Assembly (NCBI GenBank): GCA_028817405.1
Contig: JAPPPS010000081.1
Location: forward strand, 1-49,074
Length of the DNA stretch: 49,074 nt
DNA from: Gammaproteobacteria bacterium
Lineage (GTDB): Bacteria; Pseudomonadota; Gammaproteobacteria; Arenicellales; Poriferihabitantaceae
Direction of reading: 5' to 3'
This document shows positions 6,690-48,182 of this stretch, one piece after another. The notes below the pieces were generated by a model that was not told the DNA's origin, ran no database searches, and saw nothing but the letters and a program-made list of their open reading frames with translations. A program made the translations under genes and the position numbers. Position 1 is the first letter of the stretch. Each line of letters opens with the position of its first letter.

Positions 6690-7079
6690 ATGGCAAACAG
6701 CGGGAAAAATCCATCCATCGACTTTGAGAAGTCGCTGGCGGAGTTGGAGAAAATCGTGCGGCGGATGGAGCAAGGCGAGCAGTCGCTGGAGCAGACGCTC
6801 AAGGATTTTGAGCGCGGCATGGTGCTCTCGGAGCAGTGCCGCAAGCGCCTCGACGCGGCCCAGCAGCGGGTGGAAAAGTTGGTCGCCCGGCACGGCGAAT
6901 ATCGACTGGAGCCGGTCGCTGACGGTGATGACGGTGACGACGGTGGCGATGGCGACGGTGATGACGGTGACGACGGCGGTGGCGATGGCGACGGCGATGA
7001 CGGTGACGATGGCGATGACGGCGGCGACGACGGTGACGGTGACGGTGACGGTGGCGATGACGACGGCGACACGGCATGA
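6690..7079 (+). CDS. xseB: Exodeoxyribonuclease VII small subunit with Asp/Gly repeat tail
   Basis: [56 protein letters not shown] then (D/G)n tail; precedes ispA and dxs. Confidence 0.93.
6919..7076 (+). repeat. GACGGTGA/GATGGC low-complexity repeat encoding DG tail of XseB
   Basis: Nearly continuous GACGGTGAT/GACGGTGAC units by eye. Confidence 0.95.
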
Positions 7080-7146
7080 GCGCCGGCATCGTTCAGCCGA
7101 CTTTGTCACCGCCGCCCCCGCCACACCCGACATAGTGCGCCCCAAT

Positions 7147-7200
7147 CCGCCACGCCCACAGTCTGCCAACCCGCCACGCTCGCAGTCTGTTAAGCGGGCG
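7147..7200 (+). repeat. Dispersed hairpin repeat copy 1 (CCGCCACGCTCGCAGTCTGTTAAGCGGGCG) with a partial tandem copy
   Basis: 30-mer at 7171-7200 is 28/30 identical to 22441-22470; partial copy CCGCCACGCCCACAGTCTG at 7147-7165. Confidence 0.85.
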
Positions 7201-7268
7201 TCCAGCACTCCCCGCTCGTGGGCGGCGCCGGATTTTCGCGCCACCGGCCGGTTTAACTCACTCGAATT

Positions 7269-8318
7269 TTGAACACCTTCGAATCCGCCTGCCGGGCCTA
7301 CCGCGCGCGCGCCGAACCGGCCTTGGCGGCGCGGTTGCCGGGGGCCGGCGCCGACAGCGATTCCGGCTCCGACATCGCCCCCAACGCCGCTCCCTCGGCC
7401 GCGCTGGCGCCAGCGCAATTGGCGAACGCCATGCGCTACGCCTGCTTGAATGGCGGCAAGCGGTTTCGCGCCATGCTGGTCTACGCCGGCGGCGCAATCG
7501 CCGGCGCGGAAAGCGCGGCCTTGGATGCGCCGGCGGCGGCGGTGGAAATGATTCACGCCTACTCGCTGATTCACGACGACCTGCCGGCGATGGACGACGA
7601 CGACTTGCGGCGCGGCCGCCCGGCTTGTCACATCGCATTCGGCGAGGCGGCGGCGATTTTGGCCGGCGACGCGCTGCAGGCGTTGGCGTTTGAAGTTTTG
7701 AGCGCCGACCCGGCGTTGCGCGTGTCGGCCGGGCGGCGGTTGCGCATGGTGGAGACCTTGGCCGTCGCCGTCGGCGCGCGCGGCATGGCCGGCGGCCAGG
7801 CGTTGGATATGCAAGCCGGCGGCGGCGACTTCCCCGATAATTCCACCGTCGATGATTCCGCCGTCGCCCCCGCCACCGTCGCCGATTCCGCGCCAAACAC
7901 CGTCGCCCACCTGGCCCGCATCCACCGCTTAAAAACCGGCGCCTTAATTCGCGCGTCGGCGCAACTCGGCGCGCTGGCGGCCGAAGATGCCGGCGACGAA
8001 TTACTGCAACGCATCGACGACTACGCCGCGCACCTCGGCCTGGCGTTCCAAATCACCGACGACATTCTGGACGCCGAGGCCGCGCCCGACGGCGGCGCGT
8101 TGGGCAAGCGCGGCGGCGCCGACAAACGCATGCAAAAAGCCACCTACGCCGCGTTGTTGGGCGTGGAAAAAGCGCGAATCGAAGCGCGCGAAAGCGGCGA
8201 ACGCGCCGTCGCGGCCGCGGCCGGATTGCGCGAAATCGCCGCCGGCTTCGGCGATAATGCCGCGCATGCCGATTTCCTCGCGCATCTTGCGCGCTTTGCG
8301 GTCAACCGGAATTTTTGA
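7269..8318 (+). CDS. ispA: (2E,6E)-farnesyl diphosphate synthase / polyprenyl synthetase
   Basis: [55 protein letters not shown]. Confidence 0.94.
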
Positions 8319-10297
8319 TGACGGCCGACGCCTACCCGCTCCTGTTCAGCATCGACAGCCCGGCCGATTTGCGCCGGCTGGAGCCGCGCCGCCTGCCGGA
8401 ATTGGCTGATGAAATCCGCCGATTCCTCATCGAAGTCACCTCGCGCACCGGCGGCCACTTGGCGCCGGGCCTCGGCACCGTGGAGTTGACCATCGCGCTG
8501 CATTATGTGTTCGACACCCCGGCCGACCGCTTGGTATGGGACATCGGCCACCAGGCTTATCCGCACAAACTGCTGACCGGCCGGCGCGATGAATTCCACA
8601 CCATCCGTCAATACGGCGGCTTGTCCGGATTCTTGAAACGCGGCGAAAGCGCATACGACACTTTCGGCGCGGGCCACGCCAGCACCTCGGTCAGCGCCGC
8701 GCTCGGCATGGCGGTGGCGGCGCGGTTGGCCGGCGCGAAAAACGAAGTGGTGGCGGTCATCGGCGACGGCGCGCTCACCGGCGGCATGGCGTACGAGGCG
8801 CTGAACAACGCCGGCGATTTGGACGCCAATCTGCTGGTGGTGCTGAACGACAACGAGATGTCGATTTCCCCGAATGTCGGCGCGATTTCCAATTACTTGG
8901 CGCGGATGTTGTCGGGCCAGGCGTATAACAGCGGGCGCAGCGTGCTCGGCGCGTTGCCGGCGTCGGTGAAACGCCTGGCGCGACGGTGGGAAGAGCACAT
9001 GAAAGGCATGGTCATGCCCGGCACGCTGTTCGAGGAACTCGGCTTCAACTACATCGGCCCGGTCGACGGTCACAACTTGAACGCGGTCATCGCCACGCTC
9101 GCCAATATGAGACGCATGGACGGCCCGCGCTTCCTGCATCTCATCACGCAAAAAGGCAAAGGTTTCGAGCCGGCCGAAGGCGACCCGTGCATCTACCACG
9201 GCGTCACCCCGTTCAACCCCGACACCGGCAAAATGGAAAAGAAAAAAGGCCGCACCTACACGCATGTTTTCGGCGACTGGCTGTGCGACATGGCGGCGCG
9301 CGATGAGCGGTTGGTCGGCATCACACCGGCCATGCGCGAGGGTTCCGGCTTGGTGCGGTTCTCCGAACAATTCCCCGCGCGGTACTTCGATGTCGGCATC
9401 GCCGAGCAGCATGCGTTGACTTTCGCGGCCGGCCTGGCGGCCGAGGGTTTGAAGCCGGTGGTGGCGATTTACTCCACCTTTTTGCAGCGCGCGTACGACC
9501 AATTGATTCACGACATCGCCATCCAAAACCTCGATGTCACCTTGGCGATTGACCGCGCCGGTTTGGTCGGCGCCGACGGCGAGACGCACATGGGCGCGTA
9601 CGATTACGCGTATCTGCGATGCGTCCCCGGCATTGTCATCATGGCCCCCGCCGACGAAGCCGAATGCCGCGACATGCTGTTCACCGCGTACCGTCACGCG
9701 GGCCCGGCCAGCGTAAGGTATCCGCGCGGCGGCGGGCCGGGGGTGAAGGAACGCGCCGAGATGCATGCACTGCCGATTGGCAAAGCGGAAGTGCGACGAC
9801 GGGGTGGCGACGGTGTTGTCGATGTTGCCGGCGACGCTGTTGCCGGTGACGGTGTTGTCGATGCCGGTGTTGCCGGCATCGCCGGGGGCGGAGTCGCCAT
9901 TCTCGCTTTCGGCTCGCTCGTGGCGACGGCCGAAGCGGTCGGCCGGGAACTGGATGCCACCGTGGTCAACATGCGTTTCATCAAACCGTTGGACGAAGAA
10001 TTAATCGTCGAACTCGCCGACACTTGCGCGTTGTTGGTCACCGTCGAAGAACATGTCACCGCCGCCGGCGCCGGCTCGGCCGTAAGCGAAACCTTACGCC
10101 GCCGCGCCCGCCCGGTCGAACTCCTAACCCTCGGCCTGCCCGACAAACACTTAAGCCACGGCTCACAAACCGAACAACTCGCCGCCTGCAACCTCGACAC
10201 CCCGGGCATCAAACGCAGCATTCAAAAAAAACTCGAAAGCATGTCCGGTCGCGATTCGCCGCACAACCAAAACCTAAGCGAAAACCTAAGCGCCTGA
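8315..10297 (+). CDS. dxs: 1-deoxy-D-xylulose-5-phosphate synthase
   Basis: [60 protein letters not shown]; start is TTG 8315 or ATG 8318. Confidence 0.96.
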
Positions 10298-10350
10298 CCC
10301 CGACCACTTCATGCCGTGGTTTGGATGGGTTGATGAAAAAGTCGTTGGCA

Positions 10351-11211
10351 TCATGTTTTCTCCGCATCCTTGGCGATGTCGCGCAGGATGTTGAGGGCTA
10401 ATTTTAGGGCCGCGGGGTCTTTGGGGTTGTCGGTGTAGACCACGTACGCCGGGCGGCGGGCGGTGGGGGCGCCGCGCACCAGGTGCAGGTCGCCGGCCGC
10501 GACCAACGGGTCGACCATGCGGCGCGGGAAGTAGCCGGCGCCGCCGTTTTGCAGGATGTATTGCAAGCCGAGCGCGCCCAAGCCGACCGACACCGCCGGC
10601 GTCTCCAAGTCCGGGAAGGCCGCGCCATGGTCGGCGCGGAAGGTGTCGCCCCAGTCGACGAACACATAATCCTCGACCCAGTCCGGCGACACCGCGCGCG
10701 GCGTGCGCGCGGCCATCACCAGCGTTTCTTCGAACAAGTCCTCGATGACGATGCCGGCCGCCTGGCGCGGCTGGTACATCACGCAAATGTCCAGCAAACC
10801 GTCGGTCAGTTGCCGCATGAGACTGTTGGAATAATCGGCCTGCACCTGCAGCGCGACTTCCGGCGCTTGGCGGCGCATGCGCGGCATCCAGTCGAGAATC
10901 AACCTCTCCCACAAACTCACCTGCGCGCCCAACGCCAGCACCGTGCGGTAGCCCTCCGGCAGCGTCAGTTGCTGCTGCGACTGCTGCCACAAGCGCTCGA
11001 TGCCTTCGGCGTATCGGCGAAACCGCTGCCCGGCCGAGGTCAATTCGACGCCGGTAGCCCTGCGCGCGAACAGCGGCCGGCCGAACCATTCTTCCATCGC
11101 CTTGACCCGCCCGCTGACCGTTGACTGGGTGACATTCAGGGCCTCGGCGGCGCGGCTGAAACTGCCGTCGGCGGCGATTTCGAGGAAGGTGCGGATGTGT
11201 TCGAGTTTCAT
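10351..11211 (-). CDS. LysR family transcriptional regulator
   Basis: MKLEHIRTFLEIAADGSFSRAAEALNVTQSTVSGRVKAMEEWFGRPLFAR. Confidence 0.95.
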   Translation of the reverse strand: MKLEHIRTFLEIAADGSFSRAAEALNVTQSTVSGRVKAMEEWFGRPLFARRATGVELTSAGQRFRRYAEGIERLWQQSQQQLTLPEGYRTVLALGAQVSLWERLILDWMPRMRRQAPEVALQVQADYSNSLMRQLTDGLLDICVMYQPRQAAGIVIEDLFEETLVMAARTPRAVSPDWVEDYVFVDWGDTFRADHGAAFPDLETPAVSVGLGALGLQYILQNGGAGYFPRRMVDPLVAAGDLHLVRGAPTARRPAYVVYTDNPKDPAALKLALNILRDIAKDAEKT

Positions 11212-11357: not shown

Positions 11358-12518
11358 ATGTCGACCGCCGCCCCCCCGCCGTTGTCATCGCCGTTGCCGC
11401 CCGCTGCGCCGGCGTCGCCATTGCCGGCCGCGCCGGGCCACCCGGCCGCCGGCATCGCGCTGTGCGTGTTCGGCTTGTTTTTGTTCAGCGTGCAAGACCT
11501 CATCATCAAGTGGTTCAGCGGCGCGTATTCCGTGCTGCAACTGGTGTTCATCCGCGGCCTGGCGGCGCTGCCGCTGATATTAATCGCGGTGCGCTTGACC
11601 GGCGGCTGGCGCGGTTTGCGCTGCGCGCGGCCGAAGTTGCTTCTCGCGCGCGGCTTGCTCGGCTTCCTCTCGTATCTCGCGTACTACATGGCGCTTGCCG
11701 CGCTGCCGTTGGTGGAGGTGGTCACCTTGGTGTTCGCGGCGCCGGTGATTCTCACGGTGCTGTCGGCGGCGGTGCTGAAAGAGCCGGTCGGGGCGCGACG
11801 GTGGAGCGCGCTGGCGGTCGGCTTCGCCGCCATCGTGCTGGTGGTGGGGCCGTCCGGCGACTTCCGGCACTTGGCGACTTTTCTGGCGTTGTTCGCGGCC
11901 TTTGCGTACGCCTGCCAGAATCTCCTCACGCGCGTCATCGGCGTTAGCGAATCACCGTGGACGGTCATACTGTACACGCTGTTCGCGTTCATCGGCGGCA
12001 GCGTGGCTGCGGCCGCGGCGGTGGCCGTGTTCGGCGGCGCGCTGCTGGATGGGGTCGGGGTCGGGGCCGGGGCCGGGGTCGGGGTCGGGGCCGGGGCCGG
12101 CGGCGCGGACAACCCGGCGCTGCAATTTCTGCTGCGGCCGTGGAAGTTGCCGCCGCTCGGCCACGGTCTACTGATGCTGTTCCTCGGCCTCAACACCGCG
12201 CTGGCGTTTTACTGCATCACCCGCGCGTACCGCGAAACCCCGGTCAGCGTGGTCGCGCCGTTTGAATACACCTACATTATTTGGGCGGTGCTGTTCGGCT
12301 ACTTGTTGTGGGGCGAGACGCCGAAAACCACCAGCATCATCGGCGTCGCGCTGCTGGTCGGCAGCGGCTTGTACATCTTCCGCCGCGAGTTGCGCTTGAG
12401 CGCGCAGGCGGCCGACGGTCAACCGCGGCCGCGACGGTGGCGGAAGTTCCGCGGCGGCGGGTTGCCGACGGTCGATTCCGGCGGGGTGCGGCCGGTGCGG
12501 CCGGCCGGCGCGACCTGA
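11358..12518 (+). CDS. EamA/DMT superfamily transporter
   Basis: Multi-TM protein with two EamA-like halves; GIALCVFGLFLFSVQDLIIKWF ... FEYTYIIWAVLFGYLLWGETP. Confidence 0.9.
   Translation: MSTAAPPPLSSPLPPAAPASPLPAAPGHPAAGIALCVFGLFLFSVQDLIIKWFSGAYSVLQLVFIRGLAALPLILIAVRLTGGWRGLRCARPKLLLARGLLGFLSYLAYYMALAALPLVEVVTLVFAAPVILTVLSAAVLKEPVGARRWSALAVGFAAIVLVVGPSGDFRHLATFLALFAAFAYACQNLLTRVIGVSESPWTVILYTLFAFIGGSVAAAAAVAVFGGALLDGVGVGAGAGVGVGAGAGGADNPALQFLLRPWKLPPLGHGLLMLFLGLNTALAFYCITRAYRETPVSVVAPFEYTYIIWAVLFGYLLWGETPKTTSIIGVALLVGSGLYIFRRELRLSAQAADGQPRPRRWRKFRGGGLPTVDSGGVRPVRPAGAT
12051..12098 (+). repeat. Two perfect 24-bp repeats GGGGTCGGGGTCGGGGCCGGGGCC inside EamA gene
   Basis: Exact by reading; encodes GVGVGAGAGVGVGAGA; eight G4 runs with 2-nt spacers. 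Confidence 0.97.
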
Positions 12519-14299: not shown

Positions 14300-14300
14300 A

Positions 14301-17265: not shown

Positions 17266-17410
17266 CTATTCGCCGCCGTTGCCACTGTCGATTTTGTCGC
17301 TGTCGCCGTTATTCCGGCCGCGGTCGCGGCCGCCGTTACCGTCACCGTCGTCGCCGCCGCGGTCGCCGTTACTGTCACCGTCACCGTCGCCGCAGCCACC
17401 ACCGTCACCC
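17266..17410. repeat. CACCGTCGCC-type low-complexity repeat forming C-terminal tail of Rieske protein
   Basis: ACCGTCACCGTCGTCGCC...; encodes GDGDGDSNGDRGGDDGDGNGG. Confidence 0.9.
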
Positions 17411-18780
17411 AACGCAGCGCGGTATTTGCGCGCCACCCAGCGGTGGAAGTGGTGGGTCGGCGCGTCCATCGCCGGCGAGAACACGCCGCCGCCGAAGCCG
17501 GGCGACTGCCGCCCGCGCTGCATGCCCTCGACCGCGCTGATGTCCTCGCTGAACACCCGCGTCCACGCGGCCAGGTTGGCGGCGCGCGCGGCTTGGCAGC
17601 GCGCCGCATGCGCGCCGTCGCCGGTGTAGAACAGGCGCACTTCCTCGCGGATTCGGCCGGCCGCCAGCGGGCGGATAATCAGCGCGAAAAAGTGGTTGAC
17701 CTGGAAGCCCAACAGGAGATTCGGGTAGAACACCGGATACTCGGCGGTCTCGCGCTGCGCCGCCGGCCAGTCGGGGAATTCCGGCAACGCGCCATCGCCG
17801 CCGGCACCGTCGCCGTCACCGTCGTCGCCGCCACCGTCACCGTCGCCGCCACCGTCGCCAGCACCGTCACCACCGTCACCGTCGCCAAGCGCCGGGCGAA
17901 AAGTGCGCGTGCCTTGCCCGGCGAAGTCCTCGGAGACGATGACAGCGTAGTGGTCTTGCAGCGGCGAGTAGTCGTTCAGCGACGGGTGAATCCACGGCAG
18001 GTGGTAGGCCTCGCAGTAGTTTTCCACCGCCAATTTCCAGTTGCACTCGGCCTCCAGCGTGAGGCCCGCATCGGCCGCCGGCGACGCCAACGCCTCCGCC
18101 GCGGCCGCGCCGCCGTCCATCGCCGCCCCCAAATACGGCCGATACCGCGCCACCAACGGCGCCGCGTACTCCTCAAACGCCGGCGCGTCGCCGCTCAAAT
18201 CGATGAACAACACGCCGAGCCAGCAGTGCGACCGCACCGCCTTCAAGCCGTGCGCGGCGCGGCAAAACCCGTCCGCTTGATGCGCGCCGACGCCGCCGAT
18301 GTGCGGCGTGGATTTCAATCGGCCGCTCGCGTCGCTCAAGTCATACGCCCACGCGTGATACGGGCAGACCAGCAGGCCGCCGGTGGTTTTGGGCGCGTCC
18401 ACCAAGCGGCGGCCGCGGTGGCTGCAGACATTGTGGAACACCGCCGGCCGGCCGTCGCGGGCGCAGGCGATGAGCAGCGGCCAGCCCATGAAATCCACCG
18501 GCGTCACCCGGCCCGGCGTGGCATGGTCGGCGCAGAACGCCAGCGCGGTCCAGGCGCGGGCGAATAGGTGCGCGCGCTCGAAACGGTGGAATTCGGCGGC
18601 GGTGTACGCGGCGTTCGGCAGGCCGCGGGCCGCGGCGATGGGGCGGTCGACGGCGGTTAAATGGGCCGCGAGATGGGCAGCCAAACCGGCCGGCAAGTCA
18701 GCGCCGGGGTCGACGCCCAAGCCGGCATCGCGGCGCGAAAAACGCGCCGGGCGCGCGGACGGAATCGGGGAATCGGCCAT
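17266..18780 (-). CDS. Rieske 2Fe-2S aromatic-ring-hydroxylating dioxygenase alpha-subunit family protein
   Basis: CSHRGRRLVDAP...LLVCPYHAWAYDL Rieske ligands; NYCEAYHLPWIHPSL catalytic-domain motif; start ATG 18780 likely. Confidence 0.88.
   Translation of the reverse strand: MADSPIPSARPARFSRRDAGLGVDPGADLPAGLAAHLAAHLTAVDRPIAAARGLPNAAYTAAEFHRFERAHLFARAWTALAFCADHATPGRVTPVDFMGWPLLIACARDGRPAVFHNVCSHRGRRLVDAPKTTGGLLVCPYHAWAYDLSDASGRLKSTPHIGGVGAHQADGFCRAAHGLKAVRSHCWLGVLFIDLSGDAPAFEEYAAPLVARYRPYLGAAMDGGAAAAEALASPAADAGLTLEAECNWKLAVENYCEAYHLPWIHPSLNDYSPLQDHYAVIVSEDFAGQGTRTFRPALGDGDGGDGAGDGGGDGDGGGDDGDGDGAGGDGALPEFPDWPAAQRETAEYPVFYPNLLLGFQVNHFFALIIRPLAAGRIREEVRLFYTGDGAHAARCQAARAANLAAWTRVFSEDISAVEGMQRGRQSPGFGGGVFSPAMDAPTHHFHRWVARKYRAALGDGGGCGDGDGDSNGDRGGDDGDGNGGRDRGRNNGDSDKIDSGNGGE
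17791..17886. repeat. CACCGTCGCC-type repeat inside Rieske gene
   Basis: CACCGTCGCCGTCACCGTCGTCGCCGCCACCGTCACCGTCGCC...; encodes [27 protein letters not shown]. Confidence 0.95.
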
Positions 18781-21269: not shown

Positions 21270-21410
21270 CGCGCACCGTGACGGCGTGACGGTGTGACGG
21301 TGCGGCGACGGCGACTGCAACCACAACAGCAAACCAGTCGCCGTTGCCGCGCGTTTTCCGATGCGGCATAATCGACGCGCCGTCGATACCGCGTGCGCGA
21401 ATCCTCAGTC

Positions 21411-21458
21411 GACACCGTCACCGACACCGTCACCGACACCGTCACCGACACCGTCACC
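21411..21458. repeat. Four perfect tandem copies of GACACCGTCACC, 32 bp upstream of orn ATG
   Basis: Exact by base count. Confidence 0.97.
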
Positions 21459-21490
21459 GTCGCGCGCGCGTCGCCGCTTTACGATGCCTC

Positions 21491-22115: not shown

Positions 22116-22380
22116 AATTCGCAATTCCTGATGGTAGAAAAGCATGTCCCGTGCTACGACACGGGATAGGGAGCGATAGCGACCATATTTTTCACCAATC
22201 AGGAAGCCAGAGTCTTTAATTGGCCCCGCGAGCAAGCAACAAAAAACAAAGACTCTGGACTCCGGTTGCCACCGGAGTGGCAGTGGGGCGCGTCCGGCGA
22301 CCCAAATGCAGCATCGTCGAGTCGGCCAATTTGCCGTCCTTGGCGTCTGGATTCCTGTTTCCAAACAGGAATTGCGGATT
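22116..22380. repeat. Multi-hairpin intergenic repeat element copy 1 with terminal inverted repeats
   Basis: Ends AATTCGCAATTCCTG / CAGGAATTGCGGATT (14/15 inverted); internal perfect hairpins 22147-22166, 22207-22258, 22259-22278, 22351-22372; blocks shared with 31114-31290. Confidence 0.8.
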
Positions 22381-22440
22381 AGACATTTTCGCCGCCCCGA
22401 CCATCACCGCCGCGCGCCGTTCCCACCACAACACCCCCAC

Positions 22441-22470
22441 CCGCCACGCCCGCAGTCCGTTAAGCGGGCG
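22441..22470. repeat. Dispersed hairpin repeat copy 2 (CCGCCACGCCCGCAGTCCGTTAAGCGGGCG)
   Basis: 7-bp stem CGCCCGC/GCGGGCG with loop AGTCCGTTAA. Confidence 0.85.
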
Positions 22471-22491
22471 GCCAAATTACCGGCGCTGTCG

Positions 22492-23850
22492 TCAACCGAC
22501 TAACTTTCGGTAGATTTCCGGGTCGGTTGCGCCTTCGGTGCCGAACACTAATATCCGGCTGCGCGCGTCCAAATCGAGGGCCGCGGCGAGGGGCGGGTTG
22601 GCGCGGGCGGCGATGGCGGCGGCGAGGCCGGCGACCGCGGATTCGCCGGCCTCGATGGGCGGTTCGGCGCGCGCCAATAGGCGCATGGTCGGCGCGACCA
22701 AGTCGTCGGCGATGGTGAGAAAATCATCCGCGGCCGCGCCCAGCGCCTCCCACGCCAGCGCCGATGCCTCGCCGCATGACAGGCCGGCCATCAGCGTCTC
22801 TTCGGCGATGTCCACCGCCGCGGCGCGGCCCTGCTGCGCGCTGCGCAACAAACACGCGGCCAATTCCGGCTCGACCACGATGAACCGCGGCCGCCGCGCG
22901 CCGCACCGCTCCCACAAATACGCGGCCACCGCGGCCGCCAATCCGCCGACGCCGCCCTGCACGAACACATGGGTTAATGGGCGGGCCGGTGACGGTGACG
23001 ATTCCGGCGACGGTGATTCCGGTGACGGTGACGATTCCGGCGACGGTGATGCATCTGGCGACGGTGAAGATTCCGGCGACGACTCCCCCGACCGCCCCGC
23101 CCCCGCCAACAACCCCTCCGCTTGCGCGGCGATTTCCGCCAACATCACGCTGTAGCCGGCCATCACCGTGGCCGGCGTCTCGAGGTCGTCGGGGCGCGAG
23201 GTGTCGGCGACCAAGTGCCAGTTGTTGGCGGCGGCGTGCGCGGCCGCGAGGCGCACCGATTGGTCGTAGTCGCCGCGGATGCGCGTCACTTGCGCGCCCA
23301 AGTCGCGCATCGCCTGCGCGCGCCCGGCGCTGACGCCGGCGTGGATGTAGATGCGGCAGGCGCAGCCGAAGCGCGCCGCGCCCCACGCCACCGAGCGGCC
23401 GTGGTTGCCGTCGGTGGCGGTGACCACGGTGACGCCGGCGGCGATGTCGCGAAATCGACGGTGTTGACGGTGTTGACGCTGACCGTCGCCGCCCTCCAAA
23501 TCGCTTGCCGATGCATGTTCGCCGGTGGCGGCAAAAATCCGCTTCTGCAGCAGTCGCAGCACCGCAAACGCGCCGCCCAGGGCCTTGAAACTGCCGAGGC
23601 CGAAGCGCGCGGATTCGTCCTTGTAATAGACCGCTCCGAGTTCAAATTCGTCGGCCACGCCGCGCAACTCCACCAGCGGCGTCGGCCGGTAACCGCGCCA
23701 CGCGGCCATCTCGCGCGCGGCTTCCGCGGTCGCCGCCAAACTGAAATGCCGGCGCAATGCGGCCGGATACGCGGCATCCGCGGGCGCGGCGCGACGGTTG
23801 GCGTGGTGGCGCAGGCGGGCGTTGGCGAACGCCGAGTTGGTTTTATTCAT
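22492..23850 (-). CDS. PLP-dependent diaminopropionate ammonia-lyase-like / threonine dehydratase-fold enzyme
   Basis: YYKDESARFGLGSFKALGGAFAV (PLP lysine), TATDGNHGRSVAW, VQGGVGGLAAAVAAYL. Confidence 0.85.
   Translation of the reverse strand: MNKTNSAFANARLRHHANRRAAPADAAYPAALRRHFSLAATAEAAREMAAWRGYRPTPLVELRGVADEFELGAVYYKDESARFGLGSFKALGGAFAVLRLLQKRIFAATGEHASASDLEGGDGQRQHRQHRRFRDIAAGVTVVTATDGNHGRSVAWGAARFGCACRIYIHAGVSAGRAQAMRDLGAQVTRIRGDYDQSVRLAAAHAAANNWHLVADTSRPDDLETPATVMAGYSVMLAEIAAQAEGLLAGAGRSGESSPESSPSPDASPSPESSPSPESPSPESSPSPARPLTHVFVQGGVGGLAAAVAAYLWERCGARRPRFIVVEPELAACLLRSAQQGRAAAVDIAEETLMAGLSCGEASALAWEALGAAADDFLTIADDLVAPTMRLLARAEPPIEAGESAVAGLAAAIAARANPPLAAALDLDARSRILVFGTEGATDPEIYRKLVG
22975..23110. 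repeat. GGCGACGGTGATTCC-type repeat inside the PLP enzyme gene
   Basis: gacggtgacgattccggcgacggtgattccggtgacggtgacgattccggcgacggtgatgc; encodes SPSPESSPSPES. Confidence 0.95.
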
Positions 23851-23975: not shown

Positions 23976-25580
23976 ATGCACGCCTTCCTGCCCGCCGTTC
24001 CGTTGTTGGTTTTGCTCGCCGCGCTGCTCTTGAAACGCGGCGCCGTGACCAGCGCCGCGGCCGGCATCGCGGCGGTGGCCGCGGTCGCGCTGCTCGATTC
24101 ACGGTTCGCCATCCGCCCGGCCGACCTGCTGGCCGCGGACCTGCCGGTCGTCCTCATCCTCACCTTGTCGGTGGCGTTGGTCATCGCGCCGGGGCAAATA
24201 TTCAACGCGCAACTGCAAGCCGCGGGCGTCATCGACGCCATCGGCGCGCGCATCGAGCGCATCGCGCTGTCGCGCATGAAAATGGCGTCGGTCATCGTGC
24301 TCGGCGCGGCCCCGGCGCTGGAATCGCTGACCGGCTTCGGCGTGTCGCTGTTCTTCACGGTGCCGGTGTTAGTGCAACTTTTCCCGCTGCGCAAGGCGTT
24401 GCTGCTGTCGCTGCTCGGCATGAACATCATGCCGTGGGGCACGCTGGCGCTTGCCACGCTGTTAGGCGCGCAACTGGCCGGCGCGCCGTTCGCGCAGTTG
24501 GCGTTCGCCACCAGCCTCACCAGTTTCGCGGTGTTCCCGGTCATCGGCGGCTTGATTTTTTTCATCTGCCGCGCGCCGGGAACACCGTGGCGCGCCCTGC
24601 TCTTTCCGCTACTCACCGGGCTGCTGCTGTCGGGCGGCTTGGTGTTTTACAACGCGTTTGCGGCCGCGGAATTGGCCGGCGTGTGCGCCGGCCTCACCGC
24701 CGCGGCGCTGATGTTGTTGGCGGAAACCTTGCGCCGCGGGCCGGGCATTTTTGCGGCGGCCGGGGCCGAGGCCGATGCCGGTGCCGCGGCCGATGCCCAA
24801 GACCCATGGCCGCTGTGGCGGTTACTCACCCCGTATTGCATCCTCATCGCGCTCATCGCCATCTCGCGCCTCGGGCCGGTCAATCACGCGTTGCAAAACC
24901 TGCTGCGCATTGAGAGCGGCGGCGTGCAGTTGGCGGTGTTCACCAGCCCCGGCGTTTTCATCGGCCTCAGCGCGGTGTTGTTGGGGGTACTGTCGTCGCG
25001 AATTTTGGCGGGCAATGCGGCGCGCAATTCATCCGCCAATTCGCCGGCTTGGCGCGACGGTGTTTTCGCGCGCGGCCTGCAGCGCGCCGGGTATCCGGTC
25101 GCGGCAATTGCGCTGTTCGTGGTGTTCGCGCAACTGCACCGCGCCAGCGGTTTGTTCGAGGCGTTGGCGGCGCGCTTGGTGGAGTTGGATTTGACGCAAA
25201 TCGCGCTGGTCGCGCCGCTTCTCGGCATGCTGAGCGGCTACGCGACCGGCTCCAATGTCGGCGGCAACGCGCTGTTCATGGCGTTGCAAAGCGACGCCGG
25301 CCGGCATTTTGAGCAGCAATTGGCGTTCGCCGCGGCGCAGAACAGCGCCGCCGGCCGGCATTTTGAGCAGCAATTGGCGTTCGCCGCGGCGCAGAACAGC
25401 GCCGCCGGGCACGCGGTTTTTATGTCGCTGCCGATTATTCTCCTGGCGCTGTCGATTGCCGCGCCGGCCGCCGGGGCCGCCGCAAAAGATGCGCAAACCT
25501 GGCTGATTCGCCGCGCGCTGCTGTGCGCGCCGCTGATTTACGCCGCGCTGGTAATTCCGTTTTTCCTGTTAATTCGCTGA
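23976..25580 (+). CDS. L-lactate permease family transporter
   Basis: LSVALVIAPGQIFNAQLQAAGVIDAIGARIERIA, ALESLTGFGVSLFFTVPVLVQLFPLRKALLLSLLGMNIMPWGTL; start uncertain (upstream in-frame starts exist). Confidence 0.85.
   Translation: MHAFLPAVPLLVLLAALLLKRGAVTSAAAGIAAVAAVALLDSRFAIRPADLLAADLPVVLILTLSVALVIAPGQIFNAQLQAAGVIDAIGARIERIALSRMKMASVIVLGAAPALESLTGFGVSLFFTVPVLVQLFPLRKALLLSLLGMNIMPWGTLALATLLGAQLAGAPFAQLAFATSLTSFAVFPVIGGLIFFICRAPGTPWRALLFPLLTGLLLSGGLVFYNAFAAAELAGVCAGLTAAALMLLAETLRRGPGIFAAAGAEADAGAAADAQDPWPLWRLLTPYCILIALIAISRLGPVNHALQNLLRIESGGVQLAVFTSPGVFIGLSAVLLGVLSSRILAGNAARNSSANSPAWRDGVFARGLQRAGYPVAAIALFVVFAQLHRASGLFEALAARLVELDLTQIALVAPLLGMLSGYATGSNVGGNALFMALQSDAGRHFEQQLAFAAAQNSAAGRHFEQQLAFAAAQNSAAGHAVFMSLPIILLALSIAAPAAGAAAKDAQTWLIRRALLCAPLIYAALVIPFFLLIR
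25296..25403 (+). repeat. Perfect 54-bp in-frame tandem duplication within lactate permease gene
   Basis: Encodes AGRHFEQQLAFAAAQNSA twice. Confidence 0.97.
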
Positions 25581-28590: not shown

Positions 28591-29702
28591 TAGGGGCGAG
28601 GGTCGTTTTCGTTGTTGTCGGCGACGGTGTCGTTGCCGGGAACACCATCGCCGGCACCGTCACCGGGAACGCCATCGCCGGGAACACCGTCGCCAGGGTC
28701 AAAATCACCGTCACCGGGGTCGAAACCACCGTCGCCGCTTTCACCGTCACCATCACCGTCACCGCCCCCCACCCCCTTCAAATGAATCGGCGCGAACGGC
28801 GCATTCTGCACCGCCACGATGGTGCGGTCGCGCACCAATTCCAGCACCGCCATGAAGTTCACCACCAGCCCGGCCCGGCCCTCCGCGCCCAACAGCAATT
28901 CCTCAAACCGCACGAACCGGTGGCGGCGGATGCGCGCTAAGATGCGCGTCATTTTCTCGCGCACGCTCAGCGTTTCCCGGCCGATGGTCCAGTTGCGATA
29001 CTGCTCGGAGCGCTCCAGCACGGCGCGAAACGCGCCGGCCAAATCGGCCAGCGAGGCCTGCGGCAGCGGCGCGGCAGCGGTGTCGGCGCGGTCGAATTCG
29101 GCGCCCACCAAATACAACTCGCGCTCCAGCCGCGGGCGCGCATCGAGGTCGCGGGCCGCGTCGCGGAACCGCTCGTACTGCCGCAGCCGCCGCACCAACG
29201 CCGCGCGCGGGTCTTCCTCTTCCTCGTCGCCGGCCTGCACCGGGCGCGGCAGCAGCATGCGCGATTTAATCTCCGCCAGCATTGCGGCCATGACCAAATA
29301 TTCCGCCGCCAAGTCCAAGCGCAAATGCCGCATCAGTTCCACATAGTGCATATACTGGCGCGTGATGTGCGCGACCGGGATGTCGAGAATGTCGAGATTG
29401 TCGCGTCGGATGAGATACAGCAGGAGGTCGAGCGGCCCCTGAAAGGTCTCCAAAAACACCTCCAGCGCGTCCGGCGGGATATACAAATCCTGCGGCCACT
29501 GGTCGAATTTCTCGCCGTTGACTAACACCTCGGCGCGGCCCGGCGGCGCGGCCGGCGAACCGGCCGGTGTTTCGGGCGACGGTGATTCGGCCGGCGATGA
29601 ACCGGTCGCCGCGGCCGGCGGTTGTTCGGATTCGTTCATCGGCGATTGGTTCATCGGCGATTGGTTCATCGACATTTGGTTGGCGTTGGCGGCGTTATTC
29701 AT
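28590..29702 (-). CDS. scpA: Segregation and condensation protein A with repeat extensions at both ends
   Basis: ALEVFLETFQGPLDLLLYLIRRDNLDILDIPVAHITRQYMHYVELM ... AAEYLVMAAMLAEIKSRMLLPRP; start ambiguous among tandem ATGs. Confidence 0.93.
28615..28770. repeat. CACCGTC(A/G)CC repeat forming C-terminal tail of ScpA
   Basis: Encodes [45 protein letters not shown]. Confidence 0.93.
29635..29679. repeat. Three 15-bp tandem repeats TTCATCGGCGATTGG (third degenerate) at scpA start
   Basis: Each unit brings an ATG (MNQSP MNQSP MNESE). Confidence 0.93.
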
Positions 29703-34082: not shown

Positions 34083-34816
34083 TGGGCTGCGCCGGCGTTG
34101 TTGTCGGCAGCGTTGTTGTCGGCACCGTCGCCGCCGGCACCGTCGCTGCCGCCGTTGTTGTCGTTACCGTCGCGCCCGCCGTCCAGCAACCGCTGCGCAT
34201 ACCGCGCCAAAATATCGGCCTCGAGGTGGACGCGCGCGCCGGGCTGCAACGCGCCGAGCGTGGTCGACGCCAGCGTGTGCGGCACCACCATGACTTCGAA
34301 GCGGGTTTCGCGGCCGTGGTCGACGACCGCATTGACGGTCAAACTCACGCCGTCCAACGCGACCGCGCCTTTGGCCGCGATGAGGCGGCCGAACTCGCGC
34401 GGGACGGCGAATTGCATGCGCGCGCAATCGGCGGCCGGGGCGCGCGACAACAGCGCCGCCGCGGCGTCGATGTGGCCGGTCAACAGGTGGCCGCCGAGCG
34501 GAGTTTGCAGGGTCAGGGCCGGCTCCAAGTTGAGCGCATCGCCGGCCGACCATGCGCCGATGAGGCATCGGGCAAGGGTTTCCGGCGACACTTCAAACAC
34601 CGCGGATGCGCCGTCACCGTCGCCACCGTCACCACCGTCGCCGCGCAATTCGGCCACGGTCAAGCACGCGCCGTTGACCGCGACGCTGTCGCCGCGGCCG
34701 AGCGCGCCGGCGTCCAACGCGCCCAAGTCGACTTCCAACGCGCAACCGGCATCGCCACCGTCACGGCGGCGCAGCGATTTGACCGTCCCCATGGCGCGCA
34801 CGATGCCGGTGAACAT
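34079..34816 (-). CDS. ribE: Riboflavin synthase alpha subunit
   Basis: MFTGIVRAMGTV, VAVNGACLTVAEL, GGHLLTGHIDAAA, VALDGVSLTVNAV. Confidence 0.94.
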   Translation of the reverse strand: MFTGIVRAMGTVKSLRRRDGGDAGCALEVDLGALDAGALGRGDSVAVNGACLTVAELRGDGGDGGDGDGASAVFEVSPETLARCLIGAWSAGDALNLEPALTLQTPLGGHLLTGHIDAAAALLSRAPAADCARMQFAVPREFGRLIAAKGAVALDGVSLTVNAVVDHGRETRFEVMVVPHTLASTTLGALQPGARVHLEADILARYAQRLLDGGRDGNDNNGGSDGAGGDGADNNAADNNAGAAQ

Positions 34817-36766: not shown

Positions 36767-37930
36767 TTACGGTTGCGCCGCGGGCGCGTCTTCGCCTTCC
36801 TTTTTCACCGGCAGCATGTCTTCGCGGGTGATGCCGAGCGCCAGCACCACCGGGCTGGCGACAAAAACCGATGAGTAGGTGCCGACGACCACGCCGATGA
36901 ACAGCGCGATGGCGAAGCCGCGAATCACTTCGCCGCCGAAAATCAACAAGGTCAAAACCACGAACAGCGTGGTCAGCGAGGTCAGCACCGTGCGCGGCAG
37001 GGTTTGGTTGATGGAGATGTTGATGATGTCGACCGCGCCGTGCTTGCGCATTTTGCGGAAGTTTTCGCGGATGCGGTCGTAGACCACGATGGTGTCGTTC
37101 AGCGAGTAGCCGATGACCGCCAGCACCGCGGCCAGCACCGGCAACGAGAACTCGAACTGAAACAGCGAGAAGATGCCCACCGTGACCAGCACATCATGCG
37201 CCAGCGCGATGACCGAGCCGACCGCAAAACGCCATTCAAAACGGAAGGTGACATAAATTAACACGCCGATGAGCGCATACAGCATCGCCAAGCCGCCTTG
37301 GTTGGCGAGTTCGTCGCCGACTTGCGGGCCGACGAATTCCACCCGGCGCATCTGCACCCGGCAGTCGGCGACGGTGGTGGCGGGCGCGGTTTCCGGGGTG
37401 ACGGTGGATTCGTCGGTGGAATCGGGGACGGTCGATTCGGCGACGGTATCGGCGACGGTGGAATCGGCGACGGTGGAGTCATCGATGAGGGCATCGCCGC
37501 GCACCGACACGCATTGCTGCAAGCCGCCGGGGCTCTCCTCGCCGGACAGTTGCTCGCCGAACGGCGCGCGCAGCACATTGATGAGTCGCTCGCTCAATCT
37601 CGCCGCGGAGCCGGCCGCATCGCCATCGACCGTGGCCGCGGCCGCGGAACCGGCCGGCAACCTCACCAACACATCCCGCGCGGTGCCGAAATGCTGCACC
37701 ACCGCGTCGCTGAAACCGCCCTCGCGCAACGCGCCGCGCACCGACTCGATTTCCACCGATTCCTCGTAGCCGACTTCGACCAAAGTACCGCCGCTGAAAT
37801 CGATGCCGAAGTTCAGGCCGCGGCCGAGCAGCGAGGATAGCCCTGCGACCAACAACAGCGTCGACACCGTCAGCGCCAACTTGCGCCGGCCGAGGAAGTC
37901 GATGCGGGTGGCGCGCTTGAAAATTTCCAT
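36767..37930 (-). CDS. secF: Protein translocase subunit SecF
   Basis: GIDFSGGTLVEVGYEE ... VIGYSLNDTIVVYDRIREN. Confidence 0.96.
   Translation of the reverse strand: MEIFKRATRIDFLGRRKLALTVSTLLLVAGLSSLLGRGLNFGIDFSGGTLVEVGYEESVEIESVRGALREGGFSDAVVQHFGTARDVLVRLPAGSAAAATVDGDAAGSAARLSERLINVLRAPFGEQLSGEESPGGLQQCVSVRGDALIDDSTVADSTVADTVAESTVPDSTDESTVTPETAPATTVADCRVQMRRVEFVGPQVGDELANQGGLAMLYALIGVLIYVTFRFEWRFAVGSVIALAHDVLVTVGIFSLFQFEFSLPVLAAVLAVIGYSLNDTIVVYDRIRENFRKMRKHGAVDIINISINQTLPRTVLTSLTTLFVVLTLLIFGGEVIRGFAIALFIGVVVGTYSSVFVASPVVLALGITREDMLPVKKEGEDAPAAQP
37368..37490. repeat. GGCGACGGTGGAATC repeat inside secF
   Basis: Encodes DDSTVADSTVADTVAESTVPDSTDESTV in minus frame. Confidence 0.93.
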
Positions 37931-43930: not shown

Positions 43931-44065
43931 CAAGCGCCGCTGCCGCCAAAAGGCGAAAATCCAAAAGCCGCGCCCGGCCCGCCTCTCGCCACCGTCCCGC
44001 TGCATCGCCATGCTACACTTTTGCGTCCGCCGCCGCCCGCCGATGCCCGCAATTGGAATGACGGA

Positions 44066-45607
44066 ATGACCCGTTTTTTACTCAACCACGACGAAATCGC
44101 GCTGGATGCGGCGCGCGCGGACGCCACCGTGCTGGAATATTTGCGCGAGAATCGCCGCAAAATCGGCACGAAGGAAGGCTGCGCGTCCGGCGACTGCGGC
44201 GCCTGCACCGTGGTCGTGGCCGAGGCCGACGCGGCCGGCGAGGTGCTCAGTTACCGCGCGGTCAACAGTTGCATCGCCTTCGCCGGGCAGTTGCACGGCC
44301 GCCAATTAATCAGCGTCGAAGACCTGGCGGAGAACGGCGCACTCCACCCGGTGCAACGCGCGTTGGTCGAACACCACGCCTCGCAGTGCGGATTCTGCAC
44401 GCCGGGATTCGTGATGTCGTTGTTTGCGCTGTATAAAAATTGGCATGCGAAATCGCGGCGCGACGGGGAAGCGCGCGAAATTGCCGCCGCCCCGCGCCAT
44501 ATCATCGAAAACCACCTCGCCGGCAATCTCTGCCGCTGCACCGGCTACCGCCCGATTATCGACGCCGCGGCCCAAGCCACGCGCGCCGCGGCCCCGGACC
44601 AATTCAGCCGCGCCGAAAAACCGCAGGCGCGCCAACTCAAACGCCTGCGCCGCCGCCAGCCGGGCGCAAGCGACTTCCACCTGCCGCAATCGGCGCGGGA
44701 ATTGGCCGGCTTGTTGCGCGACTTGCCCGGCGCACGGTTGGTCGCCGGCGGCACCGACCTGGCGCTGGAAGTCACCCAAGAATTGCGGCCGCTCGACGCG
44801 CTCATCAGCGTCAGCCGCGTCAAAGAACTCAACCGCCTGCGCGCCACCGCCCGCCACTTGGACATCGGCGCCGCCGTGCCGCTGGCCGACTGCGCCGGCC
44901 CATTAGGCGCAGAACATCCGGCCCTGGCCGAACTCCTGCGCCGCTTCGGCTCCATGCAAATCCGCAACCAAGCCACGGTCGGCGGCAACCTCGCCAACGC
45001 CTCGCCGGTCGCCGACCTACCGCCGGCGCTCATCGCTTTGGGCGCGGAAGTGAAACTGCAGCAGGGCGCGCGCATCCGCCGCCTCGCGGTCGAGGATTTT
45101 TTCACCGCCTACAAGCAAACCGCGTTAGCGGACGGTGAATTCATCCGCAGCGTTCTGGTGCCGCGCGCCCCGGCCCTGGGTACCCTGGGTACTAAGGCGA
45201 CCAAACCGGATGCCCCGGCCGCCACACTGTACATGTACAAAATCAGCAAGCGCATGGACGACGACATCGCGGCGGTGTGCGCGGCGTTTTATGTGAGCGT
45301 GGAGCGCGGCGGCAACACCGTGGCCGGCGTGCGCGCCGCGTTCGGCGGCATGGCGGAGATTCCCAAACGCGCGCTGCATTGCGAGGAGGCGCTGCGCGGC
45401 CGGCCGCTCACCGCGGCCACGCTGGCCGCGGCCCGGCGCGCGCTGCGCGATGATTTCCAGCCCATCAGCGACGCCCGCGCCGGCGCCGCGTACCGCATGA
45501 CGGTGGCGCAGAATCTACTGAACCGCCTGTTCATGGAACTGCCCGGCGCGCGCCCCGGCGCGACCGTGCAGACCCAAATCGATGCGCGAAACGATGCGCG
45601 AAACTAA
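44066..45607 (+). CDS. xdhA: Xanthine dehydrogenase small subunit
   Basis: 2Fe-2S GCASGDCGACTVV, CGFCTPGFVMS, NLCRCTGYRPI; FAD domain VAGGTDLALEVTQ, NQATVGGNLANASPVAD. Confidence 0.95.
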   Translation: MTRFLLNHDEIALDAARADATVLEYLRENRRKIGTKEGCASGDCGACTVVVAEADAAGEVLSYRAVNSCIAFAGQLHGRQLISVEDLAENGALHPVQRALVEHHASQCGFCTPGFVMSLFALYKNWHAKSRRDGEAREIAAAPRHIIENHLAGNLCRCTGYRPIIDAAAQATRAAAPDQFSRAEKPQARQLKRLRRRQPGASDFHLPQSARELAGLLRDLPGARLVAGGTDLALEVTQELRPLDALISVSRVKELNRLRATARHLDIGAAVPLADCAGPLGAEHPALAELLRRFGSMQIRNQATVGGNLANASPVADLPPALIALGAEVKLQQGARIRRLAVEDFFTAYKQTALADGEFIRSVLVPRAPALGTLGTKATKPDAPAATLYMYKISKRMDDDIAAVCAAFYVSVERGGNTVAGVRAAFGGMAEIPKRALHCEEALRGRPLTAATLAAARRALRDDFQPISDARAGAAYRMTVAQNLLNRLFMELPGARPGATVQTQIDARNDARN

Positions 45608-48182
45608 GTCAACCGGGTCGACGGGGGCGACAGTGTCGACAGCGTCCCCGCCCGCCCCGGCAACCCCGGCCGCGTCCCCGCCAGCGCCGGCCGCGACCAC
45701 AACCCGGGCCGCGCCGCCGCACGACAGCGCCCGCGGCCATGTCACCGGCGACGCGCTTTATGTCGGCGACCACGCGCGCGCCGCCGGGCAACTGTTCGCC
45801 TGCGTCGGCGGCAGCGCCATCGCGCACGGCCGCGTGAGACGCATGGACTTGTCGCGGGTGCGCGCCGCCGCCGGCGTGGTCGATGTCATCACCGCGGCCG
45901 AGGTGCCGGGCGCGTTGGACATCGGCCCGGTCTTCCCCGGCGACCCGCTTTTCGTCGACGCCGCGGCCGGTACCATTGAGTACATGGGCCAGTTGCTGTT
46001 CGCGGTCGCGGCCACCGATTTCACCGCGGCCCGCCGCGCCGCGGCCCTGGCGCGCATCGACTACGCGCCGCGCCGGCCGCTGCTGGACTTGCGGGAGGCG
46101 GCGGAACAATCGCACTTCGTCCGCCCGCCGCACCGCATGCAATGCGGCGACGCCGCGGCCGCGCTGGCGAAAGCCGAACACCGCATCCGCGGCCAAATCC
46201 GCGTCGGCGGCCAGGAGCATTTCTACCTCGAGGGCCAGGTCGCGCGCGCCGTTCCCGGCGAGGACGGCACCGTCACAGTCCACAGTTCCAACCAAAACCC
46301 GACCGAGACGCAGATTCAGGTGGCGACGGTGCTCGGCATCCCGATGCACAAAGTCACGCTCAGCACCCGGCGTATGGGCGGCGCGTTCGGCGGCAAGGAA
46401 ACCCACGCCGGGCCGTGGGCTTGCATCGCCGCGCTGTTCGCCGTGCGCACCGGGCGGACGGTCGAGTGCCGGCTGGCGCGCCGCGACGACATGCGCATGA
46501 CCGGCAAACGCCATCCGTTTTGGAACCGATACGAAGTCGGCTACGACGGCGACGGGCGCATCACCGCCGCGCGTTATGTGTTAGCGGCGCAGTGCGGCAA
46601 CTCGCCGGACTTGTCGGACGCGGTGGTCGACCGCGCGATGTTCCACTGCGACAACGCCTACCACCTGCCGCACGCCACCATCGACGGTCTGCGGTGCAAA
46701 ACCCACACCGTCTCCAGCACCGCGTTCCGCGGCTTCGGTGGGCCGCAAGGCATGTTGGTCGCGGAGGAAGTCATCGACCAAATCGCGTTCGCCCTCGGCG
46801 CCGACCCGCTGGATATTCGCAAGCGGAATTTATACGGAGAGGCACCGCGCAACCGCACGCCGTACGGCCAAACCGTCACCGACTTCCCGCTGCCGCGCAT
46901 CATCGAGCAACTGGAGCGCGAGTCGGATTACCGTCGCCGCCGCGCGCGCATCCGCCGCGACAACGCCGCCAGTCCGGTACTGAAAAGGGGCCTGGCGCTG
47001 ACCCCGGTCAAGTTCGGCATCTCGTTCACGGTCGCGCACTTGAACCAGGCCGGCGCGCTACTGCACTTGTACACCGACGGTAGCATCTTGCTGAACCACG
47101 GCGGCACCGAGATGGGCCAGGGCTTGCAAATCAAAGTCGCGCAGGTGGTCGCGGCGGAGTTGGGCGTGGCCGTGGCGCGCGTGCGGGTGTCGGCGACGCG
47201 CACCGACAAAGTGCCGAACACCGCCCCGACCGCGGCATCGGCCGGCAGCGACCTGAACGGCATGGCGGCGCGCAACGCTGCGCGCGAGATTAAGGCGCGG
47301 CTGGCGGCGCATTTGGCGGCGACGCATGGCGCGGACGCGGCGCAGGTGACATTCGCTGATGACCGCATCACGGTCGCGGGCCGGGCCGTGACTTGGGAAC
47401 AAGCGGCGCAGTCGGCGTGGCGCGCCCGGGTGCCGTTGTCGGCGGCCGGCTTCTACCGCACGCCGAAAATCCACTACGACCGCGCGTCCGCCAACGGCCG
47501 CCCGTTCTACTATTTCGCCTGCGGCGCCGCGGTGTCCGAAGTCGTCATCGACACCTTAACCGGCGAGTACAAACTGCTGCGCGCCGACCTGCTGCACGAC
47601 GCCGGCAATTCCATCAACCCGGCGGTGGATTTGGGGCAAGTCGAGGGCGGCTTCCTGCAAGGCATCGGCTGGCTGACCTGCGAGGAATTAAAGTGGGACG
47701 CGGACGGCCGCCTGCTGACCGACAGCGCCGCCACCTACAAAATCCCCGCGGTCTCGGACGCGCCGGCCGAGTTCAACGCCCAACTGCTGGCCGATTCGCC
47801 GAACGCCGAGGACACGATTCTGCGCTCCAAAGCGGTCGGCGAACCGCCGCTGATGTTGGCGATTTCCGTGTGGTGCGCGATTCGCGACGCGCTGGCATCG
47901 CTCGCCGACTACCGCGTCTGCCCGCGCCTGAACGCGCCGGCCACGCCGGAGGAAATTCTGCGCGTGGCGGAGGAATTGCGGGGTGGGGACGGGGGCGGTG
48001 GTGGTGACGGTGGTGGCGGCCGCGACGAAAATGGCGGCCCTGGCCGCGGCGGCGATGGCGGCGACGGCGACATCTCCCGTCACCCCCGCAGTCCGTTAAG
48101 CGGGGGCGACGGTGATGACGGTGGTGACGGTGGCGGCACCGGCAACCCCGTCCGCGGCAAAACCGGCGAGGGCGCGCCATGA
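45582..48182 (+). CDS. xdhB: Xanthine dehydrogenase molybdopterin-binding subunit with repeat-rich ends
   Basis: GGAFGGKETHAG, FRGFGGPQGMLVAEEVID, HGGTEMGQGLQIKVAQVVA, LHDAGNSINPAVDLGQVEGGFLQGIGW, SKAVGEPPLMLA. Confidence 0.95.
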   Translation: MRETMRETKSTGSTGATVSTASPPAPATPAASPPAPAATTTRAAPPHDSARGHVTGDALYVGDHARAAGQLFACVGGSAIAHGRVRRMDLSRVRAAAGVVDVITAAEVPGALDIGPVFPGDPLFVDAAAGTIEYMGQLLFAVAATDFTAARRAAALARIDYAPRRPLLDLREAAEQSHFVRPPHRMQCGDAAAALAKAEHRIRGQIRVGGQEHFYLEGQVARAVPGEDGTVTVHSSNQNPTETQIQVATVLGIPMHKVTLSTRRMGGAFGGKETHAGPWACIAALFAVRTGRTVECRLARRDDMRMTGKRHPFWNRYEVGYDGDGRITAARYVLAAQCGNSPDLSDAVVDRAMFHCDNAYHLPHATIDGLRCKTHTVSSTAFRGFGGPQGMLVAEEVIDQIAFALGADPLDIRKRNLYGEAPRNRTPYGQTVTDFPLPRIIEQLERESDYRRRRARIRRDNAASPVLKRGLALTPVKFGISFTVAHLNQAGALLHLYTDGSILLNHGGTEMGQGLQIKVAQVVAAELGVAVARVRVSATRTDKVPNTAPTAASAGSDLNGMAARNAAREIKARLAAHLAATHGADAAQVTFADDRITVAGRAVTWEQAAQSAWRARVPLSAAGFYRTPKIHYDRASANGRPFYYFACGAAVSEVVIDTLTGEYKLLRADLLHDAGNSINPAVDLGQVEGGFLQGIGWLTCEELKWDADGRLLTDSAATYKIPAVSDAPAEFNAQLLADSPNAEDTILRSKAVGEPPLMLAISVWCAIRDALASLADYRVCPRLNAPATPEEILRVAEELRGGDGGGGGDGGGGRDENGGPGRGGDGGDGDISRHPRSPLSGGDGDDGGDGGGTGNPVRGKTGEGAP
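47985..48170 (+). repeat. GGTGACGGTGG low-complexity tail of xdhB including hairpin repeat copy 3 (48081-48107)
   Basis: gggggcggtggtggtgacggtggtggcggc ... CACCCCCGCAGTCCGTTAAGCGGGGGC ... gacggtgatgacggtggtgacggtggcggc. Confidence 0.92.

What the first reader, a model, noticed from the sequence alone, without database searches (positions are those of the whole stretch)
6919..48170. Family of GACGGTG/CACCGTC micro-repeats apparently inserted in-frame into many core genes, read in different frames and strands
Similar short nucleotide motifs (GGCGACGGTG, GACGGTGATTCC and complements) recur within or at the ends of xseB, ispA, dxs, the Rieske gene, the PLP lyase, scpA, ribE, secF and xdhB, and between genes (21272-21315, 21411-21458). 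Related GC-rich repeats sit in rluB, scpB, ribH, ribBA, ribD, mlaB, EamA and lactate permease. The encoded peptide differs by frame: DGDG (xseB, scpA, ribE, Rieske, xdhB), TVADSTV (secF, ispA), SPSPES (PLP lyase). Conserved DNA with changing peptide points to a DNA-level process, such as a proliferating repeat or repeated slippage, tolerated at protein loops and termini. The closest known analogy is the in-frame Rickettsia palindromic elements, but these have a different sequence and form.
Basis: partly seen in the sequence, partly recalled or inferred. Interest (0 to 1): 0.88.

Follow-up and report, generated by a model that had tools for sequence, protein, structure and literature searches.

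The report
Species-specific in-frame GACGGT repeat outbreak
In one marine-type gammaproteobacterium, about one gene in seven, including core ones, carries short tandem runs of the DNA word GACGGT that its sister species lack; they look like locally grown repeats tolerated in protein loops and tails, and why this one word multiplies is unexplained.

Summary
GACGGTG occurs 103 times in the window against about 10 expected. In 446 kb sampled from the same genome there are 85 same-strand GACGGT arrays. There are none in 882 kb of three congeners (including the orthologous genes), none in 225 kb of another family of the order, and none in about 0.79 Mb of dxs-region loci from other bacteria, mostly Proteobacteria. 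GACGGT is the most clustered of 1,119 hexamers tested. Alignments with congeners show lineage-specific in-frame insertions in xseB, ispA, dxs, the Rieske gene, the PLP enzyme, scpA, ribE, secF and xdhB. Arrays also lie between genes and are read in at least four frames (DG favoured), so the process acts on DNA and protein constraint filters it.

The reading as an RPE-like proliferating element is not supported. Arrays at different loci share no long units beyond a Markov null, carry no palindrome as a rule, and have varied periods. They look like independent, local tandem duplications. MutS is intact, RecJ is present (split by a contig end), and no Y1/RAYT transposase was found. An uptake-word or Chi-like word is weakened: outside arrays the ACCGT bias (1.72x) is ordinary for these species and shows no consistent strand bias. 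Why this word is favoured remains open.

The parts
6921..7069 (+). xseB C-terminal array, GAC-GGT frame (DGDG tail), 33/36-bp nested tandem units
   Evidence: own protein 129 aa against 85-88 aa in G002/G001
7830..7904 (-). ispA internal array (motif on - strand; read TVADSTV), disordered loop
   Evidence: absent from 22 orthologs; pLDDT 50-67 between helices 173-185 and 212-236
9809..9877 (+). dxs internal array, period 15 (VAGDG)
   Evidence: 20-aa own-only insert after residue 498
17318..17409 (-). Rieske/ring-hydroxylating protein C-terminal array (DGDG)
17799..17886 (-). Rieske/ring-hydroxylating protein internal array (DGDG), 28-aa own-only insert
21278..21302 (+). intergenic array, period 8 (not a multiple of 3)
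21410..21461 (-). intergenic array, perfect 12-bp period x4.2
22986..23081 (+). array inside the PLP enzyme (gene on - strand; read SPSPES)
23457..23487 (+). second, short array in the PLP enzyme
28623..28760 (-). scpA C-terminal array, 53-aa own-only insert (DGDG)
34120..34171 (-). ribE C-terminal array (DG/ADNN)
34615..34642 (-). ribE internal array (GDGGDGGDGDG)
37370..37477 (+). array inside secF (gene on - strand; read STVADSTV), 40 aa absent from G002
48000..48133 (+). xdhB C-terminal GDGG array
48077..48112 (.). palindrome CCGTCACCCCCGC-AGTCCGTTAA-GCGGGGGCGACGG nested in the xdhB insert; the core hairpin recurs between genes elsewhere
12051..12100 (+). EamA-type transporter: unrelated 24-bp tandem repeat (own-only insert), same class of event without the motif
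25290..25408 (+). lactate permease: 54-bp in-frame tandem duplication, no motif

Best explanation
The arrays are a lineage-specific outbreak of short tandem repeats. Copies of the word GACGGT (ACCGTC on the other strand) at many unlinked places were multiplied locally by tandem duplication, most likely strand slippage at replication or repair. Units grew in steps of 6, 7, 9, 12, 15, 18 bp and more, and then diverged by point mutation. Each array was born where it stands; nothing was copied from place to place. Between genes any step size occurs; inside genes selection kept only in-frame steps, in loops, linkers and tails, and favoured the frame that reads Asp-Gly. Shown: species specificity, word specificity, insertion relative to congeners, lack of shared long units, frame filter. 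Inferred: slippage as the mutational step. Not known: why this word is favoured so strongly.
For: Own genome 85 arrays in 446 kb; 0 in 882 kb of three congeners, 0 in 225 kb of G028 and 0 in 0.79 Mb of other loci. GACGGT is the top clustered hexamer: 620 same-strand pairs against 53 expected. Spacing is a multiple of 3 in 186/199 steps inside genes but 63/99 between genes. Shared k-mers between loci are at or below Markov simulation: k=24, 27 pairs observed against 30-34 simulated. Frames of clusters: DG 43, TV 10, SP 4, other 2, intergenic 30, i.e. 34% of clusters in 11.5% of the sequence. 27 own-only inserts of at least 4 aa against 2-12 in congeners for the same genes. 25 of 47 own-only inserts repeat a 10-nt word within themselves or 60 nt of flank. 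Protein-defined inserts use GGT for 47/147 Gly codons against 11% in the sampled genes, so the signature is in the DNA. Non-motif tandem repeats are only mildly raised, 543/Mb against 229-427. The IspA insert is a disordered loop in an otherwise well-predicted fold, mean pLDDT 89.
Against: Plain slippage does not explain why one word makes up 35% of tandem-repeat loci when it is not the commonest word and its repeat does not fold stably (DNA fold rank 34 of 84). MutS is intact and RecJ is present though split between two contigs that overlap by 55 bp. Several inserts are only cryptically repetitive. Within arrays the motif is slightly better conserved than its spacers (mismatch 0.078 against 0.111, p=0.0003), which hints at targeting or function, but arrays were chosen by the motif.
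Confidence: 0.62

Rival explanations
1. A site-specific agent (nickase, relaxase-like or other DNA-binding protein, or a stalled polymerase) acts at GACGGT and triggers local duplication, so the word itself is the generator.
For: Word specificity; the same word with different spacers and periods (7, 8, 11, 12, 13, 25) between genes; motif slightly better conserved than spacers.
Against: No agent identified; no Y1_Tnp/RAYT transposase in the genome. Many single GACGGT sites have not expanded (530 isolated copies).
Confidence: 0.2
2. GACGGT/ACCGTC is a recognition word under molecular drive or selection (DNA uptake sequence, Chi-like or nucleoid site) and arrays are strong versions of it.
For: Isolated copies are 3x congeners (1.19 against 0.385 per kb); rare codons are used to make the word (CGT 0.25 against 0.06, GGT 0.21 against 0.08); ComEC present.
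Against: With arrays masked the signal reduces to a 5-mer, ACCGT, at 1.72x, no stronger than the top 5-mers of relatives (1.68, 1.70, 1.76). At aligned conserved sites other words changed more (rank 41 of 1,546 and 11 of 1,473). No consistent strand bias by contig. Known uptake words are long, dispersed and strongly over-represented as single copies (PMC1939737, PMC2346458).
Confidence: 0.08
3. A mobile palindromic micro-element of the RPE/REP type inserted in frame.
For: The genome holds intergenic palindromes resembling CGTC-tagged REPs (GGAATGACGG ends), a class known to enter genes (PMC3733652); a palindrome is nested in the xdhB insert.
Against: No fixed unit, no palindrome in nearly all arrays, no shared long sequence between loci, no RAYT.
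Confidence: 0.04
4. Protein-level selection for acidic Asp-Gly linkers, for example in a salty or calcium-rich niche.
For: 43 of 59 coding clusters read DG.
Against: 30 of 89 clusters lie between genes; TV and SP frames occur; GGT codon excess in the inserts.
Confidence: 0.04
5. Assembly, binning or compositional artefact.
For: Metagenome-type assembly in 160 contigs; word usage differs broadly between these species.
Against: 93% of steps inside genes keep frame against 64% between genes; reading frames stay open; the excess is over codon usage; arrays lie well inside contigs.
Confidence: 0.02

Closest known systems
Rickettsia palindromic elements and intragenic CGTC/GTAG REPs (PMC3733652)
   Same: Short DNA inserted in frame into many unrelated core genes, read in several frames, tolerated at loops and ends
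   Different: Those are copied elements of defined length and palindromic structure; here no fixed unit, no palindrome, no copying signal, tandem growth in place
Bacterial simple sequence repeats and VNTRs (contingency loci, MIRU-type loci; from general knowledge)
   Same: Tandem units, imperfect, multiples of 3 in genes, slippage-like
   Different: One word at an estimated 500-600 loci across core genes of one species, absent from congeners; not confined to surface or switch genes
DNA uptake sequences of Neisseriaceae and Pasteurellaceae (PMC1939737, PMC2346458)
   Same: One short word enriched on both strands inside and between genes
   Different: Uptake words are dispersed single copies with a long consensus; here the strong signal is tandem clustering and the single-copy excess is ordinary
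HIP1 of cyanobacteria and Chi sites (from memory, a lead only)
   Same: Genome-wide over-represented short word
   Different: Not tandem; HIP1 is an 8-bp palindrome; Chi is strand-biased, and no consistent strand bias was seen here

Membership tests
RPE / intragenic REP | Recurrent element of defined length shared between loci | tested here: not met
   pairs of loci sharing 18-30-mers at or below simulation
RPE / intragenic REP | Palindromic (stem-loop) unit | tested here: not met
   repeat strand folds weakly (-4.3 kcal/mol for 7 copies); only xdhB and one L105 gene hold a nested palindrome
RPE / intragenic REP | Inserted in frame relative to close orthologs | tested here: met
GTAG-REP with RAYT | Y1 tyrosine transposase in the genome | tested here: not met
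   none in G000 (93% complete)
Simple sequence repeat / VNTR | Tandem arrangement of short units | tested here: met
Simple sequence repeat / VNTR | Copy-number variation between strains | not testable with these tools
   one genome of the species held
DNA uptake sequence | Long consensus strongly over-represented as isolated copies | tested here: not met
   only a 5-mer at 1.72x outside arrays, typical of relatives
DNA uptake sequence | Competence machinery present | tested here: inconclusive
   ComEC present in own and congeners alike
DNA uptake sequence | Word raises DNA uptake | not testable with these tools
   needs a transformation assay
Chi / strand-biased replication words | Strand bias along the chromosome | tested here: not met
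   isolated copies balanced in 6 of 7 contigs; the window's own contig is skewed 40:19

The most novel reading that the evidence does not exclude
A sequence-directed repeat generator: in this lineage something recognises GACGGT and makes the surrounding few bases duplicate in place, seeding hundreds of arrays in core genes within one species.
Probability: 0.22. Interest if true: 0.85.

Novelty: new variant of a known kind. Interest (0 to 1): 0.6.

Why it matters
Bacterial core proteins are usually thought to resist insertions. Here about 14% of sampled genes (50 of 368) hold such arrays, and proteins from exonuclease VII to SecF, MutS and RecJ took in repeat peptides in one lineage while sister species did not. 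It offers a natural experiment on how DNA-level repeat growth makes new disordered protein segments and on what limits repeat expansion in bacteria. If the word specificity has a cause such as a protein or a lesion, that would be a new kind of mutational process.

Tried and rejected
Copy-paste dispersal: rejected by the shared k-mer test. Loss of MutS or RecJ: MutS intact and RecJ present though split by a contig end. RAYT/Y1 transposase: absent. Parallel outbreak in G154 (62 hits of the 14-mer in the class survey): in the sampled stretches its arrays are TVTV repeats in very long open frames, a different thing. Outbreak in G028: only two short GAGGGT arrays. Drive on single copies: first looked strong, then matched the ordinary word bias of relatives. 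Hairpin-driven slippage: the repeat folds unremarkably. The palindrome CCCGCAGTCTGTTAAGCGGG in viral contigs: no match. Paper searches found no description of this organism's repeats.

Full report
Source. The window is contig C104 of a 2.86-Mb, 160-contig genome, 93% complete. Its Dxs is nearest to marine gammaproteobacterial metagenome genomes, among them records labelled Arenicellales and Arenicella; the order is an inference from those titles. Three congeners (G001-G003) are held. 446 kb of the own genome, 882 kb of congeners, 225 kb of another family of the order (G028) and dxs-region loci of other bacteria, mostly Proteobacteria (0.79 Mb), were compared. Genes were called with a simple hexamer-model caller of my own, so intergenic counts are approximate.

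Observation. GACGGTG occurs 103 times in the window against 9.7 expected. GGCGACGGTGA occurs 393 times in the genome (reversed control 2) against 20, 25 and 5 in congeners. GACGGTGACGGTGA occurs 182 times; the next highest of 109 genomes of the order has 10, and of 369 genomes sampled from the class only G154 stands out, with 62. In the G154 stretches sampled, the arrays are TVTV repeats in very long open frames. Arrays of three or more same-strand GACGGT: 85 in 446 kb own, 0 in all comparison sets. 50 of 368 genes called in the own sample hold an array.

Word specificity. Of 1,119 hexamers GACGGT has the greatest excess of same-strand neighbours within 40 bp, 620 pairs against 53. Tandem repeats bearing the word are 289 per Mb against 0-28 in relatives; other tandem repeats are 543 against 229-427 per Mb. 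So there is a mild general rise and a strong word-specific one.

Insertion, not ancestry. Aligning window proteins with congener orthologs gives 47 own-only inserts of at least 4 aa, 741 aa in all. In genes present in all four species there are 27 own-only inserts against 12, 4 and 2. 18 of the 47 hold the word. Many of the others are unrelated tandem duplications, such as the 54-bp duplication in the lactate permease. All 22 IspA orthologs lack the IspA insert, which is modelled as a disordered loop between two helices in a confidently predicted fold. MutS and RecJ carry GDGDG segments too.

DNA level, protein filter. Clusters: 43 in the DG frame, 10 TV, 4 SP, 2 other, 30 intergenic. Intergenic density is about four times that in genes. 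Steps between copies are multiples of 3 in 186/199 cases inside genes and 63/99 between genes. Inserts defined by protein alignment alone use GGT for 32% of Gly codons against 11% in the sampled genes. A protein-level cause alone cannot do this.

Local birth. In register, arrays at different loci share 12- to 36-mers no more often than arrays simulated from a first- or second-order codon chain. There is no long common unit and no usual palindrome. Unit lengths range from 6 to 36 bp or more. This argues against a copied element and for independent tandem duplication.

Is the word selected? Isolated GACGGT is 3x more frequent than in congeners and is made with rare codons. But with arrays masked the over-representation reduces to ACCGT/ACGGT at 1.72x, the same size as the top 5-mers of relatives. 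At conserved aligned codons many words differ more between species, and there is no consistent strand bias (one contig of seven, the window's own, is skewed at p=0.01). The single-copy bias is ordinary; it may have supplied seeds. The motif is slightly better conserved than spacers inside arrays, a hint that is weakened by how the arrays were chosen.

Machinery. MutS intact; RecJ present in two contig-end pieces that overlap by 55 bp, so split by assembly; ComEC present as in relatives; no Y1 transposase. The repeat does not fold stably.

Verdict. A real, strongly species-specific outbreak of word-biased short tandem repeats in core genes. Mechanism by local duplication is well supported; the cause of the word bias is open.

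Noticed in passing
own genome sample (window and L089-L108): GATC is almost absent (45 against 1,482 expected), while two sampled congeners have 0.72-0.89 of expectation and G003 0.41; suggests a GATC-targeting restriction or methylation history in this lineage.
   Followed up: partly
window 22206-22258, 31273; L092 5374-5817; L093 3225-3880; L099 13571-14360: Mosaic intergenic palindromes (CCGGAGTCCAGAGTCTTTAATTG......CCGCACGGAATGACGG) resembling CGTC-tagged REP/dRS3 repeats, up to 8 near-identical copies in 446 kb.
   Followed up: partly
window 7142-7200, 22440-22475; L102 18119-18190; L099 13985-14040: Tandem half-palindromes CCGCCACGCCCGCAGTCT ending in CCCGCAGTCTGTTAAGCGGG between genes; a relative of the hairpin is nested in the xdhB insert and twice in a gene at L105 1771-1816.
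   Followed up: partly
G028 (L151, L158): Two short GAGGGT arrays and enrichment of GGTGAGGG in another family of the order; a one-base variant of the same word.
   Followed up: partly
G154 L204, L207: Very long open frames (up to 16.7 kb) with TVTV repeats encoded by GACGGTGACGGT; explains the class-survey outlier as far as sampled.
   Followed up: partly
L228 (G000 C115): MutS of the own genome has an open N-terminal stretch rich in PPPKP repeats (start uncertain) and a GGDGGDGGGDGD linker near the C-terminus.
   Followed up: no
G002 sample: Long G homopolymers (GGGGGGGG, 110 overlapping 8-mers in 100 kb), perhaps a sequencing artefact in that assembly.
   Followed up: no
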